Part shown: positions 1,995 through 19,235 of the stretch, one piece after another
Layout of the letters: each line of letters begins with the position of its first letter
Position numbering within the stretch: position 1 is the stretch's first letter
NCBI RefSeq assembly: GCF_019396345.1
Contig: NZ_JAHKRM010000003.1
Location: forward strand, 248,001-312,000
DNA from: Nonomuraea guangzhouensis
Lineage (GTDB): Bacteria; Actinomycetota; Actinomycetes; Streptosporangiales; Streptosporangiaceae
Direction of reading: 5' to 3'
Length of the DNA: 64,000 bases
Made by a program: the position numbers and the translations under genes
Notes under the pieces: model-generated
What the model was told of the DNA's origin: nothing
Seen by the model: only the letters and a program-made list of their open reading frames with translations
Databases searched by the model: none

Positions 1995-2143
1995 GGGACT
2001 CTCCTCATCGTTCCTGGCGTTGGCACCTTGCCCTCGGGCAGGTTGCCGGACCGTCATCGGGCCAGGCCCCTCGGATCCTCTGGATGATCTCGGTGGAGAG
2101 ATCCTGCCTCAGCGTGGCGGGCGGCGTCAAACGTCAACCCGAC

Positions 2144-3351: not shown

Positions 3352-6300
3352 ATGGCTCGCATTGTGTCCGGTGGGGGATGGTTCTCCCGGTGGCCGGTGG
3401 TTCGGCAGCTCAAGGGAGAGGACGGCAGGAGCGACGCCGCGCGCTCCGCCCGTACCGACGCGTTGACTCCCCGCATCCAGGAGGCCGACAAGGTCGCGCG
3501 GTCGGTCTGTCCCTACTGCGCGGTCGGTTGCGGGCAGCTCGTGTACGTCAAGGATGGCCGGGTCACGCAGATCGAGGGGGACCCCGACTCGCCCATCTCG
3601 CGCGGGCGGCTGTGTCCCAAGGGGTCGGCGAGCAAGCAACTGGTCACGCATCCCGGGCGCCAGACACAGGTGTTGTACCGGAGGCCGCACGGCACCGGGT
3701 GGGAGCGGCTCGATCTCGGCACCGCGATGGAGATGATCGCCGACCGGGTCGTGCGGACCCGGCGGGAGACGTGGCAGCAGACCCATGAGGGCAAGGTCGT
3801 GCGCCGCACGATGGGCATCGCCGGGTTGGGCGGGGCGACGCTCGACGACGAAGAGAACTACCTGATGAAGAAGCTCTACACCGCCCTCGGCGCGATCCAG
3901 GTGGAGAACCAGGCGCGTATTTGACACTCCTCCACCGTCCCCGGTCTGGGGATCAGCTTCGGGCGTGGCGGCGCGACCACCTTCCAGCAGGACCTGGCGG
4001 GTGCGGACTGCATCGTCATCCAGGGCTCCAACATGGCCGAATGCCATCCGGTGGGGTTCCAGTGGGTGGTGGAGGCCAAGGCGCGGGGGGCGAAGGTGTT
4101 CCACGTGGATCCGCGTTTCACCCGGACCAGCGCGCTGGCCGACCGCCACCTGCCGATCCGCGCGGGTAGCGACATCGTGCTGCTCGGGGCGCTGATCAGC
4201 CACGTGCTCGGCAATGAGCTGGACTTCCGTGAGTACGTGCTGGCCTACACCAACGCCGCCACGATCGTGTCCGAGGACTTCCGGGACACCGAGGACCTCG
4301 ACGGGCTGTTCTCCGGCTTCGACCCGGAGACGCGTACGTACGACCCGAGCAGCTGGGCGTACGAGGGGACGGGCGAGCAGGCGCCGGGCGAGCACCTGGA
4401 GGGCGGCCGGCACCACGCCGCTGCCGCCGGTGCGGACACCTACGGCTCCGGCGGGCCCGCCGCGCATCCCAGCGCGGCGACGGATCCGACGCTGTGCCAT
4501 CCACGCTGCGTCTACCAGATCCTCCGGCGGCACTTCGCCCGCTACACCCCGGAGCTGGTCGAGCGGCTGTGCGGCATCTCGCGGGCGGACTTCGTCGAGC
4601 TCGCCGACGCGATCACCGCGAACTCCGGCCGGGAGCGCACCACCGCCTGGGTGTACTCGGTCGGCTGGACCCAGCACACGGTGGGCGCGCAGTACATCCG
4701 CACCGCCGCGATCCTCCAGCTGCTGCTGGGCAACATGGGCCGGCCCGGTGGCGGCATCCTGGCGCTGCGCGGGCACGCGAGCATCCAGGGCTCGACCGAC
4801 ATCCCGACGCTGTTCAACCTCCTGCCCGGGTACCTGTCCATGCCCCACGCCCACCGGCACGAGGGCCTGGCCGACTACCTGGCCCGCGAGGGCGGCGAGA
4901 AGGGCTTCTGGGGTCACCGGCGCTCCTACCTGGTGAGCCTGCTCAAGGCGTGGTGGGGGGAGGCGGCCACCGAGGAGAACGACTTCTGCTTCGACCACCT
5001 GCCACGCCTCACCGGCGACCACGGCCACTACAACACCGTGATGGGCCAGATCGACGGGACGGTGAAGGGCTACTTCGTGGTGGGGGAGAACCCCGCCGTA
5101 GGCTCCTCCGGCGGCCGGGCGCAGCGCCTCGGCCTGGCCAACCTCGACTGGCTGGTGGTACGCGACCTGACGCTGGTGGAGACGGCCACCTTCTGGCAGG
5201 ACGGCCCGGAGCTGGAGACCGGGGAGCTGCGTACCGAGGACATCGCCACCGAGGTGTTCTTCCTGCCCGCCGCGAGCCACGTGGAGAAGGAAGGCACGTT
5301 CACCAACACCCAGCGGCTGCTGCAGTGGCGGGAGAAGGCGCTCGACCCGCCGGGCGACTGCCGCAGCGACCTGTGGTTCTACTACCACCTCGGCAAGCTG
5401 GTCAGGCGGCGGCTGACCGGCGACGAGATCGACCGGCCGCTGCGCGAGCTGACCTGGGACTATCCCGAGGAGGGGGCGCACCGGGATCCGTCGGCGTCGG
5501 CGGTGCTCCGCGAGATCAACGGGGTCGGCCCGGACGGGCGGGCGCTGTCCTCCTACACCCAGCTCAAGCCGGACGGGTCCACCAGCTGCGGCTGCTGGAT
5601 CTACTGCGGGGTTTACGCCGACGAGGTCAACCAGGCGGCCCGGCGCCGGCCGGGGCGGGAGCAGTCCCCCGTGGCGCCCGAATGGGGCTGGGCCTGGCCG
5701 GCCAACCGGCGGATCCTTTACAACCGGGCCTCCGCCGACCCGGAGGGCCGTCCGTGGAGCGAGCGCAAGGCCTATGTCTGGTGGGACGCCGAACGCGGGG
5801 AGTGGACCGGCCACGACGTGCCCGACTTCGAGAAGGGCAAGCCACCGGACTACGTGCCGCCCGAAGGTGCCAAGGCCGAGGCGGCGCTGGCCGGGATCGA
5901 CCCGTTCATCATGCAGTCCGACGGGAAGGGCTGGCTGTACGCGCCGGCCGGGCTGGCCGACGGCCCGCTGCCCGCGCACTACGAGCCGCACGAGTCGCCG
6001 GTCGGCAACCCGCTGTACGCCCAGCAGGCCAACCCCGCCCGCGAGATCTATTCGCGGCCGGAGAGCCCCTACAACCCGCCGGAGTCGCCGCGCTTCCCCT
6101 ACGTGCTGACCACGTACCGGCTCACCGAGCACCACACGGCGGGCGGCATGAGCCGGCCGCTGGCCTACCTGGCCGAGCTGCAGCCGGAGCTGTTCTGCGA
6201 GGTGTCCCCGCAGCTGGCCGCCGAGGTGGGGCTGGTCAACGGCGGCTGGGCGACGATCGTGACCACCCGCACCGTGATCGAGGCCAGGGTGCTGGTCACC

Positions 6301-6543
6301 GGCCGGATGCGGCCGCTGCGCGTCCAGGGCCGGGTGATCCATCAGATCGGCCTGCCGTACCACTGGGGCTGGGGCGGTGGCGGCCTGGTGACCGGCGACG
6401 TCGCCAACGACCTGCTGCCGCTGGTGCTCGACCCGAACGTGCACATTCAGGAGGGCAAGGCCATGACCTGCGACGTACGGCCCGGCAGACGGCCGAGGGG
6501 ACAGGCGATGCTCGATCTGCTGGAGGGTTACCGCCATGGCTGA
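3352..6543 (+). CDS. fdh: formate dehydrogenase alpha subunit, selenocysteine-containing
   Basis: Molybdopterin enzyme oxidising formate to CO2, 1063 residues when the in-frame UGA at 3922-3924 is read as selenocysteine 191. Visible: the [4Fe-4S] motif C53-x2-C56-x3-C60...C88 (CPYCAVGC, then GRLCPKG), and the family active site NQARI-U-HSSTVPGL with the invariant His right after Sec. Downstream are GSNMAECHPVGFQWV and a C-terminal molydopterin dinucleotide-binding domain (PYHWGWGGGG near the end). The downstream part is in the same frame as the N-terminal part and fully homologous, so this is recoding and not a nonsense mutation. No twin-arginine signal is seen, so the enzyme probably faces the cytoplasm. 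It overlaps the beta subunit by 8 bases. The start ATG at 3352 lacks a strong ribosome site. Confidence 0.96.
3922..3954 (+). promoter_or_regulatory. bacterial SECIS element (Sec-UGA plus hairpin)
   Basis: The UGA (3922-3924) is followed by a hairpin with stem UCCCC (3938-3942) / GGGGA (3948-3952) and loop GGUCU (3943-3947); a G-U pair (3937/3953) can extend it. From recalled sequence, the E. coli fdhF SECIS carries the same GGUCU apical motif, also starting at base 22 counted from the U of UGA. This is the element SelB's C-terminal winged helices bind, so that EF-Tu-like SelB can deliver Sec-tRNA at the UGA. Confidence 0.9.
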
Positions 6544-7327
6544 GCGGATGGGGTTCTTCACCGACACGAGCGTCTGCATCGGCTGCAAGGCCTGCGAGGT
6601 GGCCTGCAAGGAGTGGAACCAGCTGCCCGACGACGGGTTCGTGTTCGAGGCGACCTCGTACGACAACACCGGGGCGCTCGGGGCGAGCACCTGGCGGCAC
6701 GTGGCCTTCATCGAGCAGTCGGTGCGGGCGCCTGACGACCGCGCTGACGACGGCGTGGAGCGGTGGCTGATGTCGTCGGACGTGTGCAAGCACTGCACGC
6801 ACGCCGCCTGCCTGGACGTCTGCCCGACCGGTGCGTTGTTCCGCACGGAGTTCGGCACGGTGGTGATCCAGGAGGACATCTGCAACGGCTGCGGCTACTG
6901 CGTCTCGGCCTGCCCATACGGGGTGATCGACCGCAGGGAGGGCGACGGGCGGGCGTGGAAGTGCACCATGTGCTACGACCGGCAGCGCGGCGGCCTCGAA
7001 CCGGCCTGCGCCAAAGCGTGCCCGACCGACTCGATCCAGTTCGGCCCGCTCGACGAGCTCCGCGAGCGGGCGGAGGAGCGGGTGGAACGGCTGCGCGCCG
7101 ACGGGCGGACCGAGGCCCGGCTGTACGGCGAGAGCCCGGACGACGGGGTGGGCGGGGCGGGCGCGTTCTTCCTGCTGCTTGACGAGCCTGAGGTGTACGG
7201 GCTGCCGCCGGATCCCGTGGTGACCACCCGCGACCTGCCGTCCATGTGGCGTTGGGCGGGGGTGGCGGCGTTGTCCCTGGCCGGGGCGGTGGCGGTGGCC
7301 TTTGTGGGTTCGGGGGCGCGGCGATGA
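6536..7327 (+). CDS. formate dehydrogenase beta subunit, 4x[4Fe-4S] ferredoxin
   Basis: 263 residues, the electron-transfer subunit carrying electrons from the molybdenum subunit to the membrane. Four cysteine clusters are visible: CIGCKACEVAC (about 14-24), CKHCTHAACLDVC (about 82-95), CNGCGYCVSAC (about 118-128), and CTMC with CAKAC (about 142-165). A single hydrophobic helix near the C-terminus (about 238-258) anchors it, as in FdnH/FdoH. It overlaps the alpha gene by 8 bases and the next gene by ATGA, so the three genes are translated together. Confidence 0.93.
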   Translation: MAERMGFFTDTSVCIGCKACEVACKEWNQLPDDGFVFEATSYDNTGALGASTWRHVAFIEQSVRAPDDRADDGVERWLMSSDVCKHCTHAACLDVCPTGALFRTEFGTVVIQEDICNGCGYCVSACPYGVIDRREGDGRAWKCTMCYDRQRGGLEPACAKACPTDSIQFGPLDELRERAEERVERLRADGRTEARLYGESPDDGVGGAGAFFLLLDEPEVYGLPPDPVVTTRDLPSMWRWAGVAALSLAGAVAVAFVGSGARR

Positions 7328-8229
7328 CGCGGGAGCGGTCGATGGTGCCGGAGGCGGAGTTCCGCTCGTACTACGGCCGGCCGGTGCTCAAGGCCCCCGT
7401 CTGGCACGAACCCCATATGCCGACATATCTCTATTCGGGGGGTTTGTCGGGGGCCTCGTCGGTGATGGCGGTCATGGCCGGGCTCACTGGGCACGACCGG
7501 CTGGCGCGCACCGCCCGGGTCGCGGCGGCGCTCGGCGCCGCCGCCGGCACCGGGTTCCTCATAGCCGAACTGGGCAGGCCTTCTCGGTTTCTCAACATGT
7601 TCCGCGTGTTCAAGCCCACCTCGCCGATGAGCCTGGGCTCCTGGCTCCTGGCCGCCCAGGGCGGGCTGTCGGCGGTCGCCGCCTCGACCGAGCTGACCGG
7701 GATCCTGCCCGTCGCGGGCGACGCGGCGGCCCTCGCCACGGGCCTGACCGGCCCGCTGACCGCCACCTACACGGCCGTCGTGGTCGCCGACACCGCCGTA
7801 CCCGCCTGGCACGAGGCCTATCGGGAGCTGCCGTTCCTGTTCGCCGGGAGCGCGCTGGCCAGCGCCGGGGCGGTGGGCATGCTGGCGACCCCTCGGGCGG
7901 AGGCGGGGCCGGCTCGGGTGGTGGCGGTGGTCGGGGCGGTGGTGGAGAGTGTCGCGGGCATGCTGATGGAACGTCGGCTCGGGCTGGTCGGTGAGCCGTA
8001 TCGGGTGGGGAAGGCGGGGCGCCTGATGCTCTCGGCCCGCGTGCTGACGGCGGGTGGCGGGCTGCTCGCGGCGGTCGCCGGGCGCGGCCGTGTCCTGACC
8101 GCGCTTTCCGGTCTCGCCCTGACGGCGGGTGCGCTGTGTACTCGGTTCGGCATCCTGGAGGCGGGCAGGGCGTCGGCCGCCGACCCGAAGTACACCGTCG
8201 TTCCGCAGCGAGAGCGCCTCTGCACCTAG
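7324..8229 (+). CDS. NrfD/PsrC-like membrane subunit of formate dehydrogenase
   Basis: 301 residues with about eight hydrophobic segments, beginning after a polar N-terminus (YYGRPVLKAPVWHEPHMPTYLYSGG). That opening, plus FLIAELGRPSRFLNMFRVFKPTSPMSLGSW, is typical of the NrfD family, which passes electrons between a ferredoxin-like subunit and quinone without heme. It replaces the cytochrome b gamma subunit of the E. coli enzyme. The start is the ATG overlapping the beta stop (ATGA). Third gene of the operon; no fdhD or fdhE is seen nearby. Confidence 0.88.
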   Translation: MTRERSMVPEAEFRSYYGRPVLKAPVWHEPHMPTYLYSGGLSGASSVMAVMAGLTGHDRLARTARVAAALGAAAGTGFLIAELGRPSRFLNMFRVFKPTSPMSLGSWLLAAQGGLSAVAASTELTGILPVAGDAAALATGLTGPLTATYTAVVVADTAVPAWHEAYRELPFLFAGSALASAGAVGMLATPRAEAGPARVVAVVGAVVESVAGMLMERRLGLVGEPYRVGKAGRLMLSARVLTAGGGLLAAVAGRGRVLTALSGLALTAGALCTRFGILEAGRASAADPKYTVVPQRERLCT

Positions 8230-8237
8230 GACAGCGC

Positions 8238-8263
8238 GGCGCGCATGCGGTCGCATGCGCGCC
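8238..8263. terminator. perfect hairpin between convergent genes
   Basis: GGCGCGCATGCG (8238-8249) and CGCATGCGCGCC (8252-8263) form a perfect 12-base inverted repeat with a 2-base centre. It sits 8 bases after the fdh operon and 12 before the end of the convergent gene. No T-run follows, which is normal in high-GC actinomycetes. Probably a two-way terminator. Confidence 0.7.
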
Positions 8264-8275
8264 CGAGCAGGTGTG

Positions 8276-9472
8276 TCAGAGGCCCGCGTTCACCGTGACC
8301 GTCGTGTCATTCGGGACCTTGACCAGGGGCTTGGTCACGTTCTTGACGAGGTTGCCGGTGGAGACGACGGTCAGTGACGCGCCGCTCTTCTTCTCGTACT
8401 GCAGCCCTGTCTGGTCGGCGGTGCCGTTGCCCAGAATGGCGTTGCCGGTGACCACGACGTTCCCGGCGCCCGAGTCCACCCCGTCCAGGGCGATGTAGTA
8501 GTAGTGAGGGCCCGTCGGCGGCGTCTTGCCCGCGTCGCGGAAGTTGTGGATCTTGTTGTTGGAGATCGTCGTGGTCGCGCCTTCCTGCACTACGCAGCGG
8601 ATGCCGTACAACCACGCCTCTGCCGTGGTGGCCTGGTAGCCGAAGTCCTCGATGTAGTTGCCCTGGATCGACGTGCCGAAGCAGCGGTTGAGGTCGAGGG
8701 CGCTGCTCGCGTTGCCGTACAGGTGCAGGTCGCTGAGGAGCCAGCCGGCGGCGTTGTCCGATTCGACGGCGCTGGTGCCGCTGTCGCGTACCCATGAGCG
8801 GGTGAACGTCCAGTCGGTGATCACGCCGCCGTCCGGGTCGAGGACCTTGACGCCCGCGCCGCCGGAGCCGGTGATGTAGACGTCGCTGATCACCCCGTTC
8901 ACCATCGTGTTGGTGGCGGAATCGATGGTCGTCCCGTTCTTCGACGGGTTGCTCAGGCGGATGGCGTCCGAGGAGGTCTGCTCGATCTGGATGTCGGAGA
9001 TCCTGCTGCCCCAGGAGCGCAGCATCAGGCCGACGGTCCCGGTGGTGTTCTTGGCGCGGTTGCCGTCCAGGGTGAGCCGCTCGACGCGGATGGGGTTGCC
9101 GGAGTACGCCTGATTCGCGTCCCAGGTGTCCGAGGCCAGCAGGGCGGGCAGGTTCACGCTGTCCGCCTGCTTGATCCGCAGGCCGGTGCGCGAGTCACCG
9201 CGGTACGTGCGATCTCCGCGCAGCACGATGGTCTTGTTGATGACGCACACGGCCGGCTCGGCCGCGGTCACCGAGCGTCCTAAGATCACGATCTCGTCGC
9301 CGGCCTTCGATGCCGTGATGGCGTTGTTGATGATCGTGGCGTCGTCCGTGCCGGTGCATTGCACCTCCTTGCGGGCGGCCTCGGCGGGGGTCGGTTGCGC
9401 TATGACGGCGATCCCGGTGGCGGCCAAGGCCAGGACGGTGGCCGAGACCAGGGTGAATACCGATTTATGCAC
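8276..9472 (-). CDS. secreted right-handed beta-helix protein
   Basis: 398 residues with a Sec signal peptide (MHKSVFTLVSATVLALAATG...AEAA, cleavage about residue 33). The mature part has serial short N/S/T-rich turns (IRVERLTLDGN, ISDIQIEQTSSDAIRL, VISDVYITGSGGAGVKV, LSDLHLYGNASSALDL), the hallmark of parallel beta-helix pectate-lyase-like folds. Such proteins bind or cleave polysaccharides outside the cell. I cannot point to catalytic residues, so enzymatic activity is unproven. Monocistronic; shares the intergenic region 9473-9669 with the divergent protease gene. Confidence 0.75.
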   Translation of the reverse strand: MHKSVFTLVSATVLALAATGIAVIAQPTPAEAARKEVQCTGTDDATIINNAITASKAGDEIVILGRSVTAAEPAVCVINKTIVLRGDRTYRGDSRTGLRIKQADSVNLPALLASDTWDANQAYSGNPIRVERLTLDGNRAKNTTGTVGLMLRSWGSRISDIQIEQTSSDAIRLSNPSKNGTTIDSATNTMVNGVISDVYITGSGGAGVKVLDPDGGVITDWTFTRSWVRDSGTSAVESDNAAGWLLSDLHLYGNASSALDLNRCFGTSIQGNYIEDFGYQATTAEAWLYGIRCVVQEGATTTISNNKIHNFRDAGKTPPTGPHYYYIALDGVDSGAGNVVVTGNAILGNGTADQTGLQYEKKSGASLTVVSTGNLVKNVTKPLVKVPNDTTVTVNAGL

Positions 9473-9669
9473 TTCTCGTCTCCAGGGGGATAAAGATCGT
9501 TTACGTGCAAGATCAGTATGAAATGTATGGCTATTGAGATGAATGTCAGATTGGTCACAGATGCGCGGAACCCGTCCCCAGGGTTATCCCTCGAGGAAAA
9601 TACGGATCTTGAACGGTTGGAGCAGCGTGCCGGAGTATCGAGCCGCCCCCTACCAACCGGAGTTCCCCC

Positions 9670-10545
9670 ATGCGCAAACTCCTCGGCCATCCGCTGCCTC
9701 AGGCATTCGCCCTGCTGTTCGTGGTGCTGGCCGTCTTCTTCGCCCTGCAAGCCGTCCTGGCCACGGCCTTACAGATCGGCCCTGAGAACTTCACCCCGGT
9801 CTTGGGGCTGCTGCTGGGCCTGGCCGGAGTGGTGGCAGCGCTCATCACCATTCCGCTGGCCCGGCGCATGGAGCGTCAATCGCTCGCCGGTCTCGGCTTC
9901 CCGGCCAAGAACGCGGTCCGCCACCTGTTGAGCGGTTTCGCGGTCGGCGCGGGTGTTCAGGCGGCGGTGTTCGGAATCATGGCTGTGGCCGGCTGGTACA
10001 CCGTCTCGGCGGTCACGGTGGACATTGGTTCGCTCGTCACCATGACGTTGCTCGCCCTGTATGTCGCCTTCTGGGAGGAGTGGGCCTTCCGCGGCGTGAT
10101 GCTGCGGCTGCCGGAGAAGGCCATCGGCTCCTGGTGGGCGCTTGTGCTCAGCGCCGTGGTCTTCGGGCTCATCCACGCGCCCAACGCCAACGCCACGGCC
10201 CTGACACTGGTCGGCGTCACCGTGGCGGGCGTGCTCGTGCTCGGCGGCGGCTTCCTGCTGACCCGCTCGCTGTGGCTGCCCATCGGCATCCATACGGGCT
10301 GGAACCTGTTCGAGAACTCGGTGTTCGGGGCGGGATCGACCGGTGCCGGCGCCAACAGCGAAACCCCTTTGCTGCGAGGGCATGTCAACGGCCCGCAGTT
10401 GTGGACCGGCGGCCCTGGCGATCCGGAGTCCGGACTCGTCCTCATCCTGGTCGCCACGGTCGTGGGAGCTGTCCTTCTCTTCCTGGCCGCGCGGGCGGGC
10501 CACATCCGGGCGCCGCGCGGGAAGGCGGCTCTGGCTACCGTGTGA
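9670..10545 (+). CDS. CPBP-family (CAAX-type) intramembrane metalloprotease
   Basis: 291 residues, about eight membrane helices. The three CPBP motifs are intact: EEWAFRG with E136, E137 and R141; FGLIH with H169; and HTGWN with H208 and N212. In bacteria these proteases process peptides or act in immunity to self-made bacteriocins, and some cleave anti-sigma factors. The start has CGGAG 8 bases upstream. A response regulator gene follows after only 2 bases, so the protease and the regulator are one transcription unit. Confidence 0.85.
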   Translation: MRKLLGHPLPQAFALLFVVLAVFFALQAVLATALQIGPENFTPVLGLLLGLAGVVAALITIPLARRMERQSLAGLGFPAKNAVRHLLSGFAVGAGVQAAVFGIMAVAGWYTVSAVTVDIGSLVTMTLLALYVAFWEEWAFRGVMLRLPEKAIGSWWALVLSAVVFGLIHAPNANATALTLVGVTVAGVLVLGGGFLLTRSLWLPIGIHTGWNLFENSVFGAGSTGAGANSETPLLRGHVNGPQLWTGGPGDPESGLVLILVATVVGAVLLFLAARAGHIRAPRGKAALATV

Positions 10546-10547
10546 CC

Positions 10548-11192
10548 ATGCAGGTGATGATCGCCGACGATTCCGCGTTGTTCCGCGAGGGCCTGGCCGT
10601 CCTTCTGGAACGCGCGGGGTTCACCGTCACCGGCCTGGCCGGCGATGGGCAGACGCTGGCGCGACTGGTTCGCGCCCACCCGCCCGAGGTGGCGATCTTG
10701 GACATCCGCATGCCGCCCACCTATACGGTCGAAGGGCTGGAGCTGGCCATCCGGCTGCGCCGGGAGCATCCGTCCGTCGCGGTGCTGCTCCTGTCCAACC
10801 ACGTGGAGACCTACCACGCGGGAGAGCTCTTCGGCGGTATCCCGCACCGGACGGGCTACCTGCTGAAGGACCGGGTCGGGGCACCGGCCGAGCTGGCCGA
10901 CGCGCTGCACCGCGTGGCGGCCGGACAGACCGTGCTCGACCCCGCCGTGGTCTCGCAGTTGGTGTCCCGGCCCCGTGAGCCCGGCCCGCTCGACCGGCTC
11001 AGCCCACGTGAGCGGGAAGTGCTCACTCTCGTCGCGGAGGGCAGATCAAACCAGGGCATCGCTGACCTGCTCGGACTCACGCAGAAGACGGTCGAAGGCT
11101 ATGTCCGTGGCACTTTCGGCAAGCTCGGCCTAACGGACACGGCCGCCGACAACCGACGGGTCCTGGCCGTCCTCCGATATCTGCGCGGGTAG
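10548..11192 (+). CDS. NarL/LuxR-family response regulator
   Basis: 214 residues: receiver domain (1-120) with acidic pair D7/D8, phospho-acceptor D52 (ILDIRMP), S83 in the switch position and K107 (YLLKD), followed by a LuxR helix-turn-helix (about 148-205: LSPREREVLTLVAEG...IADLLGL..KTVEGYV). It starts 2 bases after the protease gene and its end overlaps the convergent histidine kinase gene by 63 bases. The kinase is its likely partner, and the protease gene or its own promoter a likely target. Confidence 0.92.
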   Translation: MQVMIADDSALFREGLAVLLERAGFTVTGLAGDGQTLARLVRAHPPEVAILDIRMPPTYTVEGLELAIRLRREHPSVAVLLLSNHVETYHAGELFGGIPHRTGYLLKDRVGAPAELADALHRVAAGQTVLDPAVVSQLVSRPREPGPLDRLSPREREVLTLVAEGRSNQGIADLLGLTQKTVEGYVRGTFGKLGLTDTAADNRRVLAVLRYLRG

Positions 11193-12506
11193 CACAGCTC
11201 GTACGGTGGTTCCAGCCCCAGGCGGGCTGTGCAGTAAGAAACTCCCCCCGCACGCCTCCACCCTGTCGGCCAGGCCGCGCAGGCCTCCTCCCGGTACGGC
11301 ACCCCCGCATCCGTCATCGGTCACCTCCACGGTCACCAGGCCCTTTTCCAGCACAGCGGTGATCCCCACGGTTGTCGCGCGGGCGTGCCTGCTCGCGTTG
11401 GCCAGCGCCTCCGCGGCCACGAAGTACGCGGTGCGCTCGACCTGCGGCGCCAGCCGAACGGGCAGATCGGTTCGCACCCGGACCGGCAGGGCGGCCCGCT
11501 CAGCCAGCGAGCCGAGCGCGGGACCCAGCCCAGCATCGGCCAACACCGCGGGGAACGCGCCGCGCGCCAACTCCCGTAACTCCTCCAAAGCCCGGCCCAG
11601 CTCGGCGACGGCCTGACCGAGGCGGGCCGGCTCATCACGCGCCAGTCCCAGCAACAGCCGCACGTTGACCAGCCGCTGCTGGGCGCCGTCATGGAGGTCC
11701 CGCTCGATCCGGCGCCTGGCCTCATCGCCGGCGTCGAGGAGCTCGGCCATCCGGCGCGTCGCCTCCCTGCGTCCGAGCACGACACGATAGGCCAGCGGCC
11801 AGACGATGAAACCCAGCACGACCAGGCTGTCCAGCAACCCGCCGGTGAAGTACACCGCTAGTCCACCGGCCTGCGCCAGGTTTTCCGCCTCGAGTACCAG
11901 CACCAGCAGCATGAGCACCAGCCCGGAGAACGTGACGGCCGCATCGCGTTCCTGCCGCGGCAGCCGAGCCCAGCGCAGGAACACCGCCGCTGACAGCCCG
12001 ACCGCATACGCACCGGCGATCGCCACCCCGAACAGGGCCAGCGCCGTCCGTCCTGACACCTGAGCCAGACAGAGGCACCCCCCGTCGGGCTGCTCTCCGT
12101 ACGCCATCGACATCGCGGCGGAGAGGAGTGGCACCGTGTAGCCGAGCGCCACGACCCCTCGACGGACCGGCGTGTCCGCGCGGCCGTGCGGGAGCACGAC
12201 CATCACGTGTCCGAGCAGTCCGTGCTGAAGGGCCGCCGCCACCGCGCCCAGCGCGACAGCCGCGGGCGCGCCCGCGTAGCCGACCCCGGTGGCCAGCCAC
12301 ATCACCCCGCTCCAGGCCAGCAACGATCCCACCGGGCTGTCCGGCCACCGCGTCCTCGCCCAGAGGCCACCCGATACCGCGGCAGCCCCCGCCGCATATC
12401 CCATGAACAGCAGCGGGACCTTCGTCACCACGAACTCCGCACCGATCATGGCCATTGTTCCCAAGGCGGCGAGCACGACCGCGAGTAGGGTGATCAGCCT
12501 GGGCAC
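11130..12506 (-). CDS. NarL-type sensor histidine kinase
   Basis: 458 residues from the GTG at 12506 (VPRLITLLA; the frame continues 23 codons upstream without a better site). About seven hydrophobic segments (1-245) form an integral-membrane sensor with no large loop. They are followed by a HisKA_3 dimerisation domain with H272 (ERDLHDGAQQRL) and an HATPase domain (ALANASRHA, VTDDGCGG, GLRGLADRVEA). Its 3' end lies inside the 3' end of the response regulator gene on the other strand. Cognate pairs are usually codirectional, so this tail-to-tail overlap is uncommon and may link their expression. Confidence 0.9.
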   Translation of the reverse strand: MPRLITLLAVVLAALGTMAMIGAEFVVTKVPLLFMGYAAGAAAVSGGLWARTRWPDSPVGSLLAWSGVMWLATGVGYAGAPAAVALGAVAAALQHGLLGHVMVVLPHGRADTPVRRGVVALGYTVPLLSAAMSMAYGEQPDGGCLCLAQVSGRTALALFGVAIAGAYAVGLSAAVFLRWARLPRQERDAAVTFSGLVLMLLVLVLEAENLAQAGGLAVYFTGGLLDSLVVLGFIVWPLAYRVVLGRREATRRMAELLDAGDEARRRIERDLHDGAQQRLVNVRLLLGLARDEPARLGQAVAELGRALEELRELARGAFPAVLADAGLGPALGSLAERAALPVRVRTDLPVRLAPQVERTAYFVAAEALANASRHARATTVGITAVLEKGLVTVEVTDDGCGGAVPGGGLRGLADRVEACGGSFLLHSPPGAGTTVRAVLPAQISEDGQDPSVVGGRVR

Positions 12507-12608
12507 CCGACCATTGTGGAGCCTGGCCGCTCCAGCGACGCGCCAAACCCCGTGGTGACCACGGGGGTCATCCACGGAGCTCCTCCCGTCGACTCGCGTC
12601 CGGGTCCG

Positions 12609-13343
12609 TCAGTCTGCGGTCTGGTGATACGACAGCTCGTACAGGTGCCCACCCTTGATCAAGACCGACACTTCGACCGGCCGCTCACTGTCGCTGTAGA
12701 CGACACGGAACTGCCGAAACACCGGCACGTCAGGTGGGAGATCCAGCTCCTGCACCTCCGTTTCGGTCGGCTGCCGAACGGAGATGCGGTCTATGAAGTG
12801 GTGTTGCGGAAACCCGAGGTCGGCCAGCACCTGTGGCGCGCCACCGCGGATTCTTCCCCGGCCGGCCAGCGGGCTTCCTGCTGCGATGCTTACCGGGTAG
12901 TAAGACCATGACAGTTCCACGGGGGCGCCGTCGTGCAGCAGCAGTCGATGACGCATGACGACGAGATCTTCACCGCTGACAGTGAACGCCGCAGCCACAT
13001 CACTGGGCGGTGCTACCTGCCCGACCTTCAGTAGCTCGTAGCTATATCCACGGGGATCTGGAGACATGTACGTGCTCGTGTTGACAACGAGAGGCTGCCT
13101 GTCGCGGACGAACACGCCCTTCCCAGCGTGGCCGCGTACGAATCCTTCGTCTTTCAGTGACTGAAGAGCGCGCTGGATCGTTGCGTTCGCCGCGTTGAAA
13201 CGTGCCACCAAGTGAGGCGTGGAAGGGAGTTGCTCGCCCGACTTCAGGTCACCGGACATGATCTCCGCACGCAGTTCGGCCGCGATCTGCTGATGGCGCG
13301 GACGAGAATCCAGCCGCGTACCCACGATTGCCGGTCTCCTCAC
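12609..13343 (-). CDS. GntR/HutC-family regulator (winged helix + UTRA)
   Basis: 244 residues. N-terminal GntR winged helix (about 15-80: HQQIAAELRAEIMSGDLKSGEQLPST..LVARFNAANATIQRALQSLKDEGFVRGHAGKGVFV) and C-terminal UTRA ligand-binding domain (about 100-240, VVMRHRLLLHDGAPVELSWSYYP, PTETEVQELDLPPDVPVF). It overlaps the upstream UTRA-only gene by ATGA and so is cotranscribed with it. The ligand is unknown. Likely operator: the dyad at 13985-14010. Confidence 0.9.
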   Translation of the reverse strand: MRRPAIVGTRLDSRPRHQQIAAELRAEIMSGDLKSGEQLPSTPHLVARFNAANATIQRALQSLKDEGFVRGHAGKGVFVRDRQPLVVNTSTYMSPDPRGYSYELLKVGQVAPPSDVAAAFTVSGEDLVVMRHRLLLHDGAPVELSWSYYPVSIAAGSPLAGRGRIRGGAPQVLADLGFPQHHFIDRISVRQPTETEVQELDLPPDVPVFRQFRVVYSDSERPVEVSVLIKGGHLYELSYHQTAD

Positions 13344-13882
13344 TTGATGATCATCTGATAGCGCAACTCGCGACCGTGGGCCACCATCGTCATCACGCTG
13401 ACCTCGATCGGCGTTCCGTCGTCAGTTCGAACGATGCGGGTCAGGAGTAGAACCCAGTCCTCTGGTCGAAGATCGAGAGCCTGTCGCTCTGATTCGGTCG
13501 CGGGGCGGGCTCGGACGGCTTCTTCCGCGCTGTGCGGGTGGTGGCCGAGCTGGGCGAGAAGGGTGGGAGCCCCGCCAGGGATCTTCCGCATTTCGGCGAG
13601 CTGAGTGCCACGGGCGATCGTCGCCGGGTAGTAGGAATCGGCGAGCTCCGTGGGCTGGCCGTCCGCGAGCACGAGACGGCGGCGGACGAAGGCGGTCTGA
13701 TCCGCTGCCAGTCCGAAGGCCCGCGCAACTTCCTTCGGCGGATGGACCTCTTCCACTGCCTGGAGGTGGTGCGTCCCAACCTTGCCGTGCTGGGCGGCTT
13801 CCTCCGCCCATGCATCGGGCTCTCCGGGACGCCGCGGCCGTACGTAGGGCGCGGAAACGCTGACCCAGCCCGCGTCTTCCAT
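13340..13882 (-). CDS. stand-alone UTRA-domain protein
   Basis: 180 residues containing a full UTRA domain (about 40-178: FVRRRLVLADGQPTELADSYYPATIARGT, IPGGAPTLLAQLGH, WVLLLTRIVRTDDGTPIEVSVMTM) but no DNA-binding domain. It is the paralogue of the C-terminal half of the GntR gene that follows and overlaps it by 4 bases. A UTRA-only protein coupled to a complete GntR regulator could form heterodimers or act as a ligand sink that tunes the repressor. That is inference; such pairs recur in actinomycetes. Confidence 0.82.
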   Translation of the reverse strand: MEDAGWVSVSAPYVRPRRPGEPDAWAEEAAQHGKVGTHHLQAVEEVHPPKEVARAFGLAADQTAFVRRRLVLADGQPTELADSYYPATIARGTQLAEMRKIPGGAPTLLAQLGHHPHSAEEAVRARPATESERQALDLRPEDWVLLLTRIVRTDDGTPIEVSVMTMVAHGRELRYQMIIK

Positions 13883-13984
13883 GCGCTCCTCCTTCGGTCA
13901 CGAAAGCCCGTTCAGCAGCCACCGTACCGGGTCGGTGGCGTCACACGCTGATCAAGGGAGTTGTGGCTGGCGGACGTTGTTTTT

Positions 13985-14010
13985 TTACTGCCTTTCGCGA
14001 ATCGCAGTAA
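13985..14010. promoter_or_regulatory. candidate GntR operator
   Basis: TTACTGC (13985-13991) and GCAGTAA (14004-14010) form a perfect 7-base inverted repeat with a 12-base spacer, next to a T-run, in the divergent region between the UTRA gene and the gene at 14076. Position and symmetry fit an operator of the neighbouring GntR regulator. Confidence 0.45.
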
Positions 14011-14075
14011 GGTTGTCGCAAGTCGATCGGGTCTAGGATCGGCGGCCCGCGAAGAGGTCGAAGGGGTGGGGATGC

Positions 14076-14423
14076 ATGCTTCTCAAGCCGTCGGTGATCG
14101 CCATCAGCCCTGCACAGAGCGCTCATGCCCTTCGCGATGCCCTGGCTGATCAGGGCATCGCCTCCGACATTCACGTCGGCTACGGGCTTGCTCTGGTATC
14201 GGTGTGGGTCAGCCTCGTGGTGTGGTGCGATGGCAACTGGTTCTGGTGGCGGGTGGTTGGAACGACCAGCGCAAGCGAGTCTTGTACGCCCGGCATCCAG
14301 CGGACGAACCCGTTAGAGCCGCTCGGCGGGTGGCTTGCCGGTACGCAGAGGTCTACCGGCACCATCCGCACTCGGAGCTGATCGCCGATGTCGTCTCTTC
14401 CGCCCGACGGCAAGGCACCGTGG
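14076..14423 (+). pseudogene. frameshifted small actinobacterial hypothetical gene
   Basis: Starts with ATG at 14076 (GGGGTGGGG upstream) and reads MLLKPSVIAISPAQSAHALRDAL...ALVSVWVSLVVWCDGNWFWW for about 59 residues. The C-terminal half expected in this family (KRVLYARHPADEP, AARRVACRYAEVYRHHP) is present but in the frame one base back (the frame of 14204). The switch must lie about 14250-14265. I recognise the family only as a common actinobacterial hypothetical found beside GntR/UTRA pairs. It may be a genuine pseudogene, a sequencing error, or a programmed shift. The end coordinate is approximate. Confidence 0.5.
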
Positions 14424-14901
14424 TGAGCATTCTGCGTAATGGCACGTTCGCCTTGATCGCGCTGGAGGACGAGCTAGGCCAGTTGCCTGGCGGGGTGCGG
14501 CGATGGTCCGTCCACTGGGACGACCTGCAGATCGAGTCGGGGGTGATCGGGCCTGATGAGGTGTTACGGCCTGTCCGCGGCCAGCAACGGCAGTACGTGG
14601 GCGCCGGCCAGGGACTGCATATCGGGCAGCGCCATCGTGCTGTTGAGCAGCACCATGAACTGCCCCAGGCAGGTCACTGTGAGCAAAGTTCCTCAACGTC
14701 CGGGAGGGTTTGCACTGGTCCGGCCGGGCGAGGTGGTGATCGTCGTCCTTATGGGGCGACCCCGTGTCGATGTTGTCCTGTTCGGCGTGGACGCGCCTGT
14801 GGCAAAGCCAAAACAGGTGGCAACCGCGACCAACGTGTTGTGGCCAACATGCCGACCGCGCCACCCGGGCTGCCGCTCCTCAAGATCGGCCGCCTCGGTC
14901 G
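14424..14901. other. decayed intergenic stretch, no intact gene
   Basis: About 480 bases with no convincing coding sequence on either strand. Long open frames exist but lack recognisable domains and show mixed codon bias. The only recognisable trace is the transporter-like remnant at 14564-14677. The stretch lies between a frameshifted gene and a TetR gene, so it looks like a site of past gene loss. Confidence 0.5.
14564..14677 (-). pseudogene. possible remnant of an MFS transporter N-terminus
   Basis: A 37-codon minus-strand stretch reading VTCLGQFMVLLNSTMALPDM, which resembles the first membrane helix of EmrB/QacA-type drug exporters (typical: CLxQFMxxLDxTIVNVALP). It then ends in a stop. 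It lies downstream of, and in the same direction as, the TetR gene, the usual layout of a TetR-controlled exporter. Short and weak; the similarity could be chance. Confidence 0.25.
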
Positions 14902-15486
14902 TTACCGTTCGTCGGGTTGTAGTCCGGCCAGCGTGAGCGTGACGAGGCGGCCGATCGATTCCGTTGACGGCAGGTCGCCGGCCGCGGTGAGGGAGTGCAG
15001 GCAGTAGGTCGCCAGTTCGTCGGGGGTGACGTCGGCGCGGATGATGCCCGCGTGGGCGGCCTCGGTCAGTGCATCGCGGACCAGGTCGTGCAGTTGCTGT
15101 TGAGCATGTGCGACGCGTTCGTCGCGGTGCAGCAGCGCGCTTAGCTCGGTGCCGGGGTGCCGGTGTGACATCTCGTGGGCGATGTGTGCGTAGGCGGCCA
15201 GCACGGCGTGCAGTCGCGTGGCGGGGTCCGCGGCCGTCGACCTGGCGTCGGCAAGGTTCTGGAGGTGGCCGGCGACGTGCTGGTCGTGCCAGGCGACCAG
15301 GATCGCCTCGACATCCGGAAAGTACTTGTAGAGCGTCGCGCGCCCGATGCCGGTCCGCTCGGCGATCTGCGCCATCGTCACCGACCGCAGCCCGCGCTCG
15401 GTGACGAGCTCGGCGGTGGTGTCGAGGATGGCCTGATGCACGTCGCGGCGGTGCGCCTCGATGGTCTCGTTCCACAGCCTCGGCAT
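14902..15486 (-). CDS. TetR-family transcriptional regulator
   Basis: 194 residues from ATG 15486 (MPRLWNETIEAHRR). HTH at about 15-60 (ILDTTAELVTERGLRSVTMAQIAERTGIGRATLYKYFPDVEAIL); the C-terminal ligand domain has no recognised pocket. Divergent from the DinB-like gene, with about 100 bases between starts holding the CTCTG/CAGAG dyad. The DinB-hydrolase genes are the likely targets. Confidence 0.9.
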   Translation of the reverse strand: MPRLWNETIEAHRRDVHQAILDTTAELVTERGLRSVTMAQIAERTGIGRATLYKYFPDVEAILVAWHDQHVAGHLQNLADARSTAADPATRLHAVLAAYAHIAHEMSHRHPGTELSALLHRDERVAHAQQQLHDLVRDALTEAAHAGIIRADVTPDELATYCLHSLTAAGDLPSTESIGRLVTLTLAGLQPDER

Positions 15487-15521
15487 GAGCTCGATGATAC
15501 ACAGTGACAAGCATCGAGACA

Positions 15522-15538
15522 CTCTGCAATTGACAGAG
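15522..15538. promoter_or_regulatory. candidate TetR operator and -35 box
   Basis: CTCTG (15522-15526) and CAGAG (15534-15538) form a dyad with a 7-base spacer. A consensus -35 hexamer TTGACA (15530-15535) reading toward the DinB-like gene lies within it, so a bound repressor would cover the promoter. No convincing -10 is seen at 17 bases. Confidence 0.35.
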
Positions 15539-15589
15539 ACATTATGTATAGCAAAACTGATCTCGTTGGCACCGACACGAGGAGACATC

Positions 15590-16081
15590 GTGGTGGACGG
15601 ACATGGCGTTGAGCTGATGGCGAAGGTGCGCCGCCAACTCGACGAGAGCGCGGCGGTCTTCGCCGCCCTGGACGACGCGGACCTGAGTAAGTGCTGCCCA
15701 GATGGTGATGGGGAAACGACCGGCACCGTCGCCTCGGCCGCTGCGCATCTGGCCGAGGGTTATGCCCGTCTTGGCCGGTTCCTGCATTCGACCGGGTACG
15801 TCCCGGCCGCTCCTGAACACGGCCACGGTCACGGCCATGCGCACGGTGCCGGCCACCGGCACGCGCCGCCGCCCGCGACCGTCGCCGACGTGCTGGAACT
15901 GCTGCACCGGGTGGAACAGCCGGTCACCCTGCTGGGCGACCTGACCGACCAGCAACTCGACAGCGTGCCCGCCAAGGCGAACCGGTTCGCCGACGGGCAC
16001 CGCACGCTCCAGCAGGTGATCGACGAGATGACGGCGCACCAGGCGGCGCATCTCGCGGCGATCAAGCAGGCCCTCACATGA
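15590..16081 (+). CDS. DinB-like protein with His-rich insert
   Basis: 163 residues from the GTG at 15590, preceded by GAGGAGA. The helix pattern (LMAKVRRQLDESAAVFAAL at the start, TLQQVIDEMTAHQAAHLAAIKQAL at the end with the H-x3-H pair) suggests a DinB/mycothiol-transferase-type four-helix bundle that binds a divalent metal. Residues 77-91 are a histidine run (HGHGHGHAHGAGHRH, seven His) between helices, not a usual DinB feature. Followed after 55 bases by the hydrolase-methyltransferase gene, which has a similar His-rich linker. Confidence 0.6.
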   Translation: MVDGHGVELMAKVRRQLDESAAVFAALDDADLSKCCPDGDGETTGTVASAAAHLAEGYARLGRFLHSTGYVPAAPEHGHGHGHAHGAGHRHAPPPATVADVLELLHRVEQPVTLLGDLTDQQLDSVPAKANRFADGHRTLQQVIDEMTAHQAAHLAAIKQALT

Positions 16082-16136
16082 CCCGCCCGGTGCGGCTCCG
16101 GCTTGCGATCAAGATCTTCAAGAATGGAGAAGGCAG

Positions 16137-17636
16137 ATGAGTTACCTCGATGTGCCCGGGGCTCGGCTCTACTACGAGACCCACGGCAGCGGCCCGACCC
16201 TGGTCATGATCGCGGGGGCGGGCGGCACGGCAGACGTCTTCCGTAGGGTGACCGAACACCTCATGGCGCGGTACATGGTCGTCATCTACGACAGGCGCGG
16301 CTTCTCACGCAGCCGTTTGGACGGACCGCAGGATTACGGCCGCCGGTTGGCGACCGACGCCGACGACGTCCAGCGGCTGATCACGCACCTCGGCGACGAC
16401 CCCGCGATCGTCTTCGGCGCCAGTTCCGGCGCGATCGTGGCGCTCACCGCGCTCGCCCGGCATCCGGCCGCGGTCGGCACCGTCATCCCGTTCGAGCCGC
16501 CGGTCATGCGGTACCTGCCCGACGGGCAGAAATGGATCGACGTTTTCGCGGAGCTTTATGAGATGTACCGCCGGGTCGGCATCGGGCCGGCGCTGGAGGC
16601 GTTCCGTGACCGTACCTTCCCACCGTCGGATCGGCTGGTCATGGCGGGCGCGCCACGCAACGACGCCAATGCCGCCTACTGGTTCGAGCATGAGTTGCGC
16701 CAGTACCCGGCGGTCGAGCTGGACCTGGCCGCGCTCAGGACGTACGCCGACCGGATCGTGCCCGCGGTCGGCCGCGACGGACACGGCTACCCGGCGCACG
16801 ACGTCACCGAGGTGCTGGGCCAGACGCTCGGCCGAACCGTCGTCGAACTGCCTGGTGGCCATGTCGGTTGCGTTTCGTACCCCGAGGGGTTCGCCCTTGG
16901 GCTCGTCGCGGCGCTTGAGCGGACCGGCGCTCCGATACCGCAGAGTCCGCCGAACCCCGCGGGCCACGATCACCCGGGCCACGGGGATTTAGATCGCGAC
17001 CACCAGCCGGGTCATAACGGGGGCTACCACGCGACACATTCGCCGGGTTTGATGAGTCCAGGCGAGTGGGACGACTCGTACGTCGCCACGCCGCACTGGG
17101 ATCTCGGCCGGCCCCAACCGGCGATGCGTGCACTCGCGGACAGGGGCATCATCGAGGGTCGGGTGCTGGACGTCGGCTGCGGGACCGGCGAGCACGTGCT
17201 CATGTGCACCGCACTCGGCCTGGACGCCACCGGCGTCGACCTCGCTCCCGCGGCATTGCGCGCCGCCGAGGACAAAGCGCGGCAGCGGGGACTCTCGGCG
17301 CAGTTCGTCCTGGGCGACGCCCAGCGCCTGACCGACCTCGGACGATCCTACGAGACGGTGCTCGACTGCGGGCTGTTCCACATCTTCGACGACGACGAGC
17401 GCGCCACCTACGTCGACAACGTACGCAGCGTGCTCACGCCGGGCGGCCGGTACCTCATGCTGTGCTTCAGCGACCAGGAGCCGGGCGATCAGGGACCGCG
17501 GCGGGTGACCCTCGACGACATCACCACCACGTTCGCCGACGGCTGGCGGATCGACTCGCTCGAACCAACGACGCTCGACAGCCCGACCGGATCGGCCGGC
17601 ATCCAGGCCTGGCAGGTCATCGTTACCCGGATCTGA
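16137..17636 (+). CDS. alpha/beta-hydrolase fused to SAM-dependent methyltransferase
   Basis: 499 residues. Residues 1-260 are an alpha/beta-hydrolase: oxyanion HGSGP at 16-20, RRGFSRS at 53-59, nucleophile motif GASSG with S96, and C-terminal H241 (GGHVGC). Residues 274-300 are a His-rich linker (HDHPGHGDLDRDHQPGHNGG). Residues 305-499 are a class I methyltransferase with motif I VLDVGCGTGEH (342-352) and DLCGLFHIF-like DCGLFHIFDDDER. The two domains are normally separate genes. The frame is continuous with consistent codon use, so this is a real fusion. Substrates unknown; strong RBS (GGAGAAGG). Confidence 0.85.
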   Translation: MSYLDVPGARLYYETHGSGPTLVMIAGAGGTADVFRRVTEHLMARYMVVIYDRRGFSRSRLDGPQDYGRRLATDADDVQRLITHLGDDPAIVFGASSGAIVALTALARHPAAVGTVIPFEPPVMRYLPDGQKWIDVFAELYEMYRRVGIGPALEAFRDRTFPPSDRLVMAGAPRNDANAAYWFEHELRQYPAVELDLAALRTYADRIVPAVGRDGHGYPAHDVTEVLGQTLGRTVVELPGGHVGCVSYPEGFALGLVAALERTGAPIPQSPPNPAGHDHPGHGDLDRDHQPGHNGGYHATHSPGLMSPGEWDDSYVATPHWDLGRPQPAMRALADRGIIEGRVLDVGCGTGEHVLMCTALGLDATGVDLAPAALRAAEDKARQRGLSAQFVLGDAQRLTDLGRSYETVLDCGLFHIFDDDERATYVDNVRSVLTPGGRYLMLCFSDQEPGDQGPRRVTLDDITTTFADGWRIDSLEPTTLDSPTGSAGIQAWQVIVTRI

Positions 17637-17666
17637 GCCGAACCCGGCGGATCATCGGTCTGTTGA

Positions 17667-17891
17667 TCAGAAGCGGAACATCTCGGGGAATCGGCTGAGT
17701 AGCGCGGGATCGCCTTCCACGCGCACGCTGCCGTCGTGGAGTACTTCGCTGGGAGTCTTGCTGCCACTCATCAGTTCGCGGATGGGGTGGCCGGTCAGCC
17801 GTTCGATGACGAGGTCGGGGGCAGGGTGCGGGCCGATGCCGTCCGTGAGTGTTCCATCGATGATCTGCAGGTGGAGCGTGACATCGCCCAT
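17667..17891 (-). pseudogene. remnant of SCP2-like C-terminal domain
   Basis: 74 codons reading GDVTLHLQI...APDLVIERLTGHPIRELMSGSKTPSEVLHDGSVRVEGDPALLSRFPEMF, the last part of an SCP2/sterol-carrier-like domain as found at the C-terminus of many HxlR regulators. Nothing of the N-terminal DNA-binding domain is visible upstream (17892-18078), and the frame closes a few codons before the ATG. Probably the tail of a deleted regulator. Confidence 0.5.
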
Positions 17892-18078
17892 GCGGACCTC
17901 GTAGCCGGCACGCGATGGCGTTGGTGCACGTGATCAAAAAGGGGTCGAAGATCGACGCTAAACACGTCGACAGCTCGGGTTCCCATCGCGATGAGTCCGA
18001 CACGCTGTGGCTGGACGGCAAGAACAATCGGCCCTGAGGAGTTGACCCGCGCAAACGCTGCTGCTGCTTACTAGATGG

Positions 18079-19142: not shown

Positions 19143-19235
19143 GGAGGCGTCTGGGTGCCTGGTGGCCCCCGCGGTCTTCAAAACCGACGAGGCCGAGGTC
19201 CTCGGCCTGGCGGGTTCGATTCCCGTCCGCCTCCG
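19143..19235 (+). tRNA. selC: tRNA-Sec (anticodon UCA)
   Basis: 93 bases without encoded CCA. Acceptor stem GGAGGCG / CGCCTCC, discriminator G at 19235. Anticodon arm CGGT-CTTCAAA-ACCG with anticodon TCA. Long variable arm AGGCCGAG / CTCGGCCT (8 pairs), T-arm with TTCGATT loop. The long extra arm plus the UCA anticodon are diagnostic. It lies 12 bases before the selA ATG, so tRNA and mRNA are probably one transcript that must be processed. Confidence 0.93.

What the first reader, a model, noticed from the sequence alone, without database searches (positions are those of the whole stretch)
3352..6543. Formate dehydrogenase with recoded UGA and a conserved-geometry SECIS
The catalytic subunit has one in-frame UGA exactly at the family Sec position, followed by a hairpin whose loop (GGUCU) starts at base 22 from the UGA, the same position as I recall for E. 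coli fdhF. Automated callers will split it into two genes (3352-3924 and 4033-6543) or call it a pseudogene.
Basis: partly seen in the sequence, partly recalled or inferred. Interest (0 to 1): 0.75.

Follow-up and report, generated by a model that had tools for sequence, protein, structure and literature searches.

The report
Selenocysteine formate dehydrogenase with its machinery
This actinobacterial DNA carries a formate dehydrogenase gene with an in-frame stop codon followed by a conserved hairpin, and that stop codon is predicted to be read as the rare amino acid selenocysteine by machinery whose genes lie in the same stretch; this is a known kind of enzyme, but related bacteria carry a second gene family with the same kind of signal that likely encodes an undescribed selenium-containing membrane protein.

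Summary
Codon 191 of an otherwise open 1,063-codon frame (3352-6543) is TGA (3922-3924), at the Sec position of solved selenocysteine formate dehydrogenases. GUCCCC-GGUCU-GGGGAU follows; its loop starts at base 22 from the U, as in E. coli fdhF. The hairpin is under selection: in 95 of 95 UGA/UAG homologues the wobble bases of Val196 and Gly200 can pair, the best of 249 comparable codon pairs. All 11 close homologues found in the genus (Nonomuraea, inferred; 86-97% identity) keep UGA; the Cys form is a separate 63-66% lineage. The window also holds selD, tRNA-Sec(UCA), selA, selB, fdhB and nrfD. Listed database copies of this clade are truncated. So the reading is right, but the kind is known: NCBIfam has an actinobacterial FDH model.

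Following the Sec machinery outward gave something newer: a membrane protein family ("SecX", possibly DsbD/CcdA-like, not found in this genome) with one in-frame TGA in 72 of 73 matches, a covarying hairpin with mostly GGUCU/GGUCC loop, strong SelA in 63 of 63 host genomes (152 of 250 overall), and 115 of 116 database proteins starting after the UGA. No library or catalogue that I searched has it.

The parts
3352..6543 (+). fdhA: formate dehydrogenase alpha subunit, 1,063 residues with predicted Sec at 191
   Evidence: NF041513 1952 bits (cut-off 1400), TIGR01553 909 bits; PF04879, PF00384, PF01568
3922..3924 (+). UGA, predicted selenocysteine codon 191
   Evidence: only internal stop; aligns with Sec of 1kqf and 1h0h; TGA in 83, TAG in 12 and TGC in 15 of 110 homologous sites read out, own included
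3937..3953 (+). SECIS-like hairpin: stem 3937-3942 with 3948-3953 (outermost pair G-U), loop GGUCU 3943-3947
   Evidence: wobble pair can form in 95 of 95 and covaries; fits the published bSECIS model; -9.0 kcal/mol alone
6536..7327 (+). fdhB: 4Fe-4S beta subunit, overlapping the fdhA end
   Evidence: Fer4_11, Fer4_7; TIGR01582 187 bits, below its 335-bit cut-off
7324..8229 (+). NrfD-type membrane anchor subunit
   Evidence: PF03916 39.6 bits; no NCBIfam match
18079..19083 (-). selD, selenophosphate synthase (Cys form, GGGCACK)
   Evidence: TIGR00476 380 bits; residues read
19143..19234 (+). tRNA-Sec, anticodon UCA
   Evidence: RF01852 72.8 bits; ARAGORN; the only listed match over the cut-off in this genome
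19251..20540 (+). selA, selenocysteine synthase (start GTG 19251 inferred; ORF listed from 19155)
   Evidence: TIGR00474 433 bits; the only SelA match in the genome
20540..22345 (+). selB, Sec-specific elongation factor
   Evidence: TIGR00475 258 bits, cut-off 242; SelB-wing_3
8230..18078 (.). about 9.8 kb of other genes between nrfD and selD; in relative G006 the two matches end about 40 bp apart

Best explanation
The gene at 3352-6543 likely encodes the catalytic subunit of a formate dehydrogenase whose in-frame UGA codon 191 would be translated as selenocysteine with the help of the hairpin just downstream. Shown by calls: the site, the covarying hairpin, conservation of UGA in close relatives, and matches to selA, selB, tRNA-Sec (selC) and selD in the same window. 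Inferred: SelB carrying Sec-tRNA-Sec(UCA) binds the GGUCU loop 18 nt after the UGA and delivers Sec in place of termination. The selenium would ligate the Mo or W of the bis-MGD cofactor, as in solved relatives (recalled). Formate would be oxidised on the cytoplasmic side, because no Tat signal is seen, and electrons would pass through the FdhB iron-sulphur clusters and the NrfD-type anchor, probably to menaquinone. The layout fdhA-fdhB-nrfD-selD-tRNA-selA-selB seen in G006 suggests that the enzyme and the machinery it needs are kept as one module.
For: One internal stop, at the Sec site. All 11 same-genus close homologues have UGA at the site. Pair 196/200: 95 of 95 pairable, rank 1 of 249. 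Loop spacing equals E. coli fdhF. It fits the bSECIS model of PMC13188914 (section 5 read): loop 5 nt, stem 6 bp, G in the first two loop positions, spacing 18 nt, hairpin alone -9.0 kcal/mol. selD, tRNA-Sec, selA and selB in the window. Of 250 family genomes, at least 100 have a listed FDH row with one in-frame TGA, and 97 of these 100 have a strong SelA. Twelve loci of Blastococcus, Geodermatophilus, Modestobacter and Klenkia have UAG at the site with the hairpin kept, so the hairpin rather than the codon carries the signal.
Against: No selenium measurement. The 44-nt stretch is not unusually stable (z 0.90). Three genomes (G098, G149, G222) have a one-TGA FDH row but no SelA found; they are 82, 86 and 67% complete. 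In the 250-genome rows the codon itself was not read out, and one such row (G008, one TGA) proved to be a Cys allele with TGT at the site; the table was also cut, so 100 is approximate. The beta-subunit and NrfD matches are weak. Direction of catalysis, metal and electron acceptor are untested.
Confidence: 0.95

Rival explanations
1. The UGA is a real stop and the gene is a decayed or split pseudogene; the downstream piece may be translated alone.
For: Standard calling gives two ORFs, and databases hold 835-864 aa downstream pieces.
Against: The frame is intact on both sides with no other stop. The stop sits at the same codon in all 11 close relatives. Synonymous sites downstream covary to keep a hairpin. 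A downstream-only product lacks the Fe4S4 domain.
Confidence: 0.02
2. The UGA is read through as a standard residue (Cys or Trp) by suppression rather than as Sec.
For: Cys is the residue in the sister lineage.
Against: A complete Sec machinery lies in the same window. The hairpin fits the SelB-dependent model and is absent from the 15 Cys alleles read. Twelve loci use UAG with the hairpin kept.
Confidence: 0.03
3. The enzyme is a selenoprotein, but works mainly as a CO2 reductase or on another one-carbon substrate.
For: Homology does not fix direction; no electron acceptor was identified.
Against: Best models are formate dehydrogenase-N type, with an NrfD-type membrane subunit.
Confidence: 0.1

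Closest known systems
NCBIfam NF041513 formate_DH_Act (actinobacterial formate dehydrogenase)
   Same: 1952 bits against a 1400-bit cut-off over residues 10-1062
   Different: nothing found; this is a member
E. coli FdnG (1kqf) and the 1h0h alpha subunit (Desulfovibrio gigas, recalled)
   Same: Sec at the aligned position, same order of aligned stretches
   Different: no Tat signal seen here; about 30 extra residues between 338 and 375; anchor is NrfD-type, not cytochrome b (FdnI recalled)
E. coli fdhF SECIS
   Same: 18 nt from UGA to GGUCU
   Different: plain 6-bp stem, no bulged U (recalled for E. coli); remaining sequence differs
UAG-decoding FDHs of Geodermatophilus and Blastococcus (Mukai et al. 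2016, recalled; passages of PMC10778597 seen mention UAG, UAA and ten sense codons, without these genera)
   Same: same protein family, same type of hairpin
   Different: the window uses UGA and tRNA-Sec(UCA)

Membership tests
Formate dehydrogenase alpha subunit, Sec form (TIGR01553 / NF041513) | model score over curated cut-off | tested here: met
   908.8 against 814.2 and 1952.3 against 1400 bits
Formate dehydrogenase alpha subunit, Sec form (TIGR01553 / NF041513) | Sec codon at the metal-ligand position | tested here: met
   aligned with X of 1kqf and 1h0h
Formate dehydrogenase alpha subunit, Sec form (TIGR01553 / NF041513) | selenium in the protein and formate oxidation | not testable with these tools
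   needs experiment
Periplasmic FDH-N (FdnG sense) | twin-arginine signal peptide | tested here: not met
   N-terminus MARIVSGGGWFSRWPVVRQLKGEDGRSDAARSARTDAL has no RR motif with hydrophobic stretch (read; no signal predictor run)
Bacterial SECIS (bSECIS model, PMC13188914) | 3-9 nt loop, 4-16 bp stem, G in first two loop positions, 16-37 nt spacing, MFE at or below -7.5 | tested here: met
   5 nt, 6 bp (one G-U), GG, 18 nt, -9.0 kcal/mol for the hairpin alone; in its 44-nt context another fold is the MFE
Bacterial SECIS (bSECIS model, PMC13188914) | binding by SelB | not testable with these tools
   -
Bacterial Sec-decoding trait | selA, selB, selC, selD present | tested here: met
   all in the window
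SecX as a selenoprotein family (side finding) | in-frame UGA with coding conservation on both sides | tested here: met
   72 of 73 matches in 63 of 250 genomes have one TGA; position read out in 58 aligned copies, repeats included
SecX as a selenoprotein family (side finding) | covarying SECIS-like hairpin downstream | tested here: met
   45 distinct contexts, six core pairs 43-45 of 45 paired, a seventh 25 of 45; seven-pair stem 91.4% against 41.6-50.5% when slid
SecX as a selenoprotein family (side finding) | Cys-containing homologue at the same site | tested here: inconclusive
   two remote homologues (L201, L203) have TGC in WSPCG, but at E 2.9e-12 and 4.7e-10 only
DsbD/CcdA superfamily (SecX) | family model or fold match | tested here: inconclusive
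   three other remote homologues (L202, L204, L206) reach PF13386 at E 5e-5 to 6e-4, under its cut-off; L201 and L203 do not; SecX itself has no such hit; fold search without significant match

The most novel reading that the evidence does not exclude
The Sec machinery of this lineage has two separable clients. One is the known formate dehydrogenase of the window. The other, in sister species and many genomes of the same family, is an undescribed selenoprotein family, SecX: a roughly 240-residue membrane protein, probably of the DsbD/CcdA kind, whose UGA lies in SGSxUSxNSA (most members) and is followed by a stem whose loop, mostly GGUCU or GGUCC, lies 32 nt on. It sits beside a membrane-anchored CxxC protein, a Tat-type Cys-rich small protein and, in some, MauE, often near selD, selA and selB genes. 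It would pass electrons across the membrane to mature the Cys-rich protein. In 29 of 63 SecX genomes no formate dehydrogenase with an in-frame TGA was listed, so SecX may by itself keep the Sec trait there.
Probability: 0.9. Interest if true: 0.8.

Novelty: new member of a known kind. Interest (0 to 1): 0.4.

Why it matters
For the window, it settles an annotation: the listed database copies of this clade hold only the downstream four fifths of the enzyme, without the iron-sulphur domain. Beyond it, the same check applied to sister genomes exposes a likely selenoprotein family that gene callers truncate almost without exception and that may explain why genomes without a selenocysteine formate dehydrogenase keep Sec machinery. 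That makes a testable prediction about extracytoplasmic thiol chemistry in actinobacteria.

Full report
Observation. The frame 3352-6543 is open for 1,063 codons except for one TGA at 3922-3924, codon 191. The translation scores 1952 bits against NCBIfam NF041513, the actinobacterial formate dehydrogenase model, and 909 bits against TIGR01553, both over their cut-offs. Codon 191 aligns with the selenocysteine (X) of 1kqf_A and 1h0h_A. The loop GGTCT begins at base 22 counted from the U of UGA. In an E. coli record the fdhF TGA is likewise followed by 18 nt and then GGTCT.

Is the hairpin real? Folding the UGA and the 41 nt after it does not favour it: the MFE structure is another one, and 167 of 200 shuffles fold at least as well. 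Evolution does. I read out the site in 30 loci from whole-genome searches (the own genome plus 29 others, 30 being the most loci could give) and in 80 loci from named records, the 80 best kept of 586: 83 TGA, 12 TAG, 15 TGC (three chance motif matches dropped). In the 95 TGA/TAG sequences the third base of Val196 and the third base of Gly200 are CG 56, TA 20, TG 7, GC 2, GT 10, so 95 of 95 can pair although both positions are free to vary for the protein. Among 249 pairs of conserved fourfold-degenerate codons 2-12 apart in the same genes this pair has the largest excess of pairing over expectation (0.34; next 0.16), and it is the only pair with two variable sites that always pairs. The Pro197 wobble never varies, the lowest diversity of 114 sites. 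The 15 Cys alleles encode VVGLG or VAGLG there and lack the hairpin. The window's own outermost pair is G-U where 93 of 95 have G-C. The element meets the published bacterial SECIS model: 5-nt loop, 6-bp stem, GG start, 18-nt spacing, -9.0 kcal/mol for the hairpin alone.

Relatives. In 59 genomes (own, 35 of the same genus, 23 further), homologues at 86-97% identity occur in 11 genomes of the genus besides the window's own, each with exactly one TGA; the genus also has a 63-66% lineage, Cys wherever I read the site, and G011 has both. In a draw of 250 family genomes, at least 100 have a listed FDH row with one in-frame TGA, and 97 of these have a strong SelA; the three without are drafts of 82, 86 and 67% completeness. 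These rows were not read codon by codon, the table was cut, and G008 shows that a one-TGA row can be a Cys allele. The database view confirms the annotation problem: of the 120 listed homologues (of 7,968), all 27 at 82% identity or more are 835-864 aa downstream pieces without PF04879, and the 93 others, at 66-69%, are full length.

Machinery and layout. The window holds selD (18079-19083, -), tRNA-Sec with UCA anticodon (19143-19234, +, 72.8 bits), selA and selB. They are the only listed tRNA-Sec over the cut-off and the only SelA match of this genome. In relative G006 the nrfD and selD matches end about 40 bp apart, giving fdhA-fdhB-nrfD-selD-tRNA-selA-selB. The window has about 9.8 kb of other genes in between, and G026 has fdhA and fdhB about 20 kb apart. 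The gene has no visible twin-arginine signal, so I place it in the cytoplasmic, NrfD-anchored type by inference.

Verdict on the finding. A sound call of a known kind: FdhA is described as the most widely distributed bacterial selenoprotein family (PMC13188914, section 7 part 2), and this subfamily is curated. Selenium itself is unproven here.

Where the machinery led. Several genomes of the genus have SelA and tRNA-Sec at a second place, or have them without a one-TGA FDH row. There I found a membrane protein gene with an in-frame UGA. A search of 52 of the 59 genomes (seven of the class left out) gave 18 matches in 13 genomes, 17 with exactly one TGA and one that starts beyond the site; none in the window's genome. 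With a 9-row alignment, 63 of 250 family genomes gave 73 matches, 72 with exactly one TGA; the exception is weak (E 2.8e-6) and starts beyond the site. In 394 class genomes (partly the same ones) all 16 strong matches have one TGA and nine weak ones (E 2.9e-12 or worse) have none. Of 67 aligned copies, with repeats, 58 have TGA at the site, 2 remote ones have TGC (WSPCG) and 7 do not cover it. In 45 distinct TGA contexts a stem has, 32 nt after the UGA, the loop GGUCU (24) or GGUCC (13); eight have other letters there. Its six core pairs hold in 43-45 of 45, with changes such as U-A to G-C; a seventh holds in 25. Pairing of the seven drops from 91.4% to 41.6-50.5% when slid. All 63 SecX genomes are among the 152 of 250 with strong SelA (14 weak SelA matches dropped); hypergeometric p is 3.5e-17, which ignores relatedness. 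In 29 of the 63, no one-TGA FDH was listed (the list was cut and held matches at E 1e-150 or better, so a second, 40%-identical FDH type could be missed). Of 116 database proteins, 115 start after the site; the one that crosses it has Trp there, as a caller reading TGA as Trp would give (inference; only 7,999 candidates were scored). No Pfam or NCBIfam family matches over its cut-off.

SecX surroundings and likely role. I compared 11 neighbourhoods, three of them found through their sel genes; by similarity clusters, 8 of 11 hold a SelA-, SelB- or SelD-like gene. Recurrent neighbours are a membrane-anchored CxxC protein that resembles MauD/TlpA thioredoxins (best Pfam match E 0.056, under cut-off), a small Cys-rich protein with a twin-arginine start and an NAWRW motif (no family over cut-off), a 220-300 aa protein without a family over cut-off, and MauE (PF07291) in two of the loci scanned. 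I therefore propose that SecX feeds electrons across the membrane to mature the Cys-rich protein. That role is inferred: the superfamily assignment rests on three remote homologues that reach PF13386 just under its cut-off and that do not cover the Sec site, and the fold search was inconclusive.

Noticed in passing
L145-L150, L152-L200, L210-L212 (whole-genome loci); L036 13953-14666 (-): SecX: membrane protein family with in-frame UGA and a hairpin with mostly GGUCU/GGUCC loop, beside a CxxC protein and a Tat-type Cys-rich protein, MauE in some; not found in the window's genome.
   Followed up: yes
L046 8980-9070 and L220 12487-12578: tRNA-Sec (69.4 and 68.0 bits) with anticodon ACA, in L046 beside SelB, SelA (419 bits) and an AIRS protein taken as SelD: a whole Sec module that would read the Cys codon UGU; its client protein was not found.
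   Followed up: partly
window 2002-2090 (-): SAM-I riboswitch (57.7 bits) directly upstream of a GNAT acetyltransferase gene (1371-1994, -, start inferred); one of two matches in the genome, both on the same contig. A target that struck me as unusual (recalled).
   Followed up: partly
window 8230-18078; L049/L050: Fdh-sel module interrupted: about 9.8 kb with beta-helix, Rce1-like, two-component and GntR/UTRA genes here; in G026 fdhA and fdhB are about 20 kb apart.
   Followed up: partly
L067, L069, L075, L079-L081, L086, L091, L097, L103, L109, L111: UAG instead of UGA at the Sec site in 12 Blastococcus, Geodermatophilus, Modestobacter and Klenkia loci, with the hairpin kept.
   Followed up: partly
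L042, L045, L047, L144: A second, 40%-identical FDH with TGA at the site in four sister genomes read; G035 (L042) has it although no SelA was found in that draft.
   Followed up: partly
L100 2651-2743 and its FDH: Saccharomonospora halophila 8, listed as an orphan-SelD organism in PMC5029168 Table 1 (passage), has an FDH with TGA at the Sec site and a tRNA-Sec(UCA) on one contig.
   Followed up: partly
26 genomes of the 250-genome draw (e.g. G262, G252, G277): Strong SelA but neither a one-TGA FDH nor SecX among the listed rows; they may hold further Sec clients, or FDH rows beyond the cut list.
   Followed up: no
L052 (G018): This fdh-sel locus has selD, tRNA-Sec and selB but no selA match; the only SelA match of the genome is on another contig.
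   Followed up: no
window 12609-13882 (-): Adjacent overlapping genes, GntR-UTRA and a UTRA-only protein.
   Followed up: no
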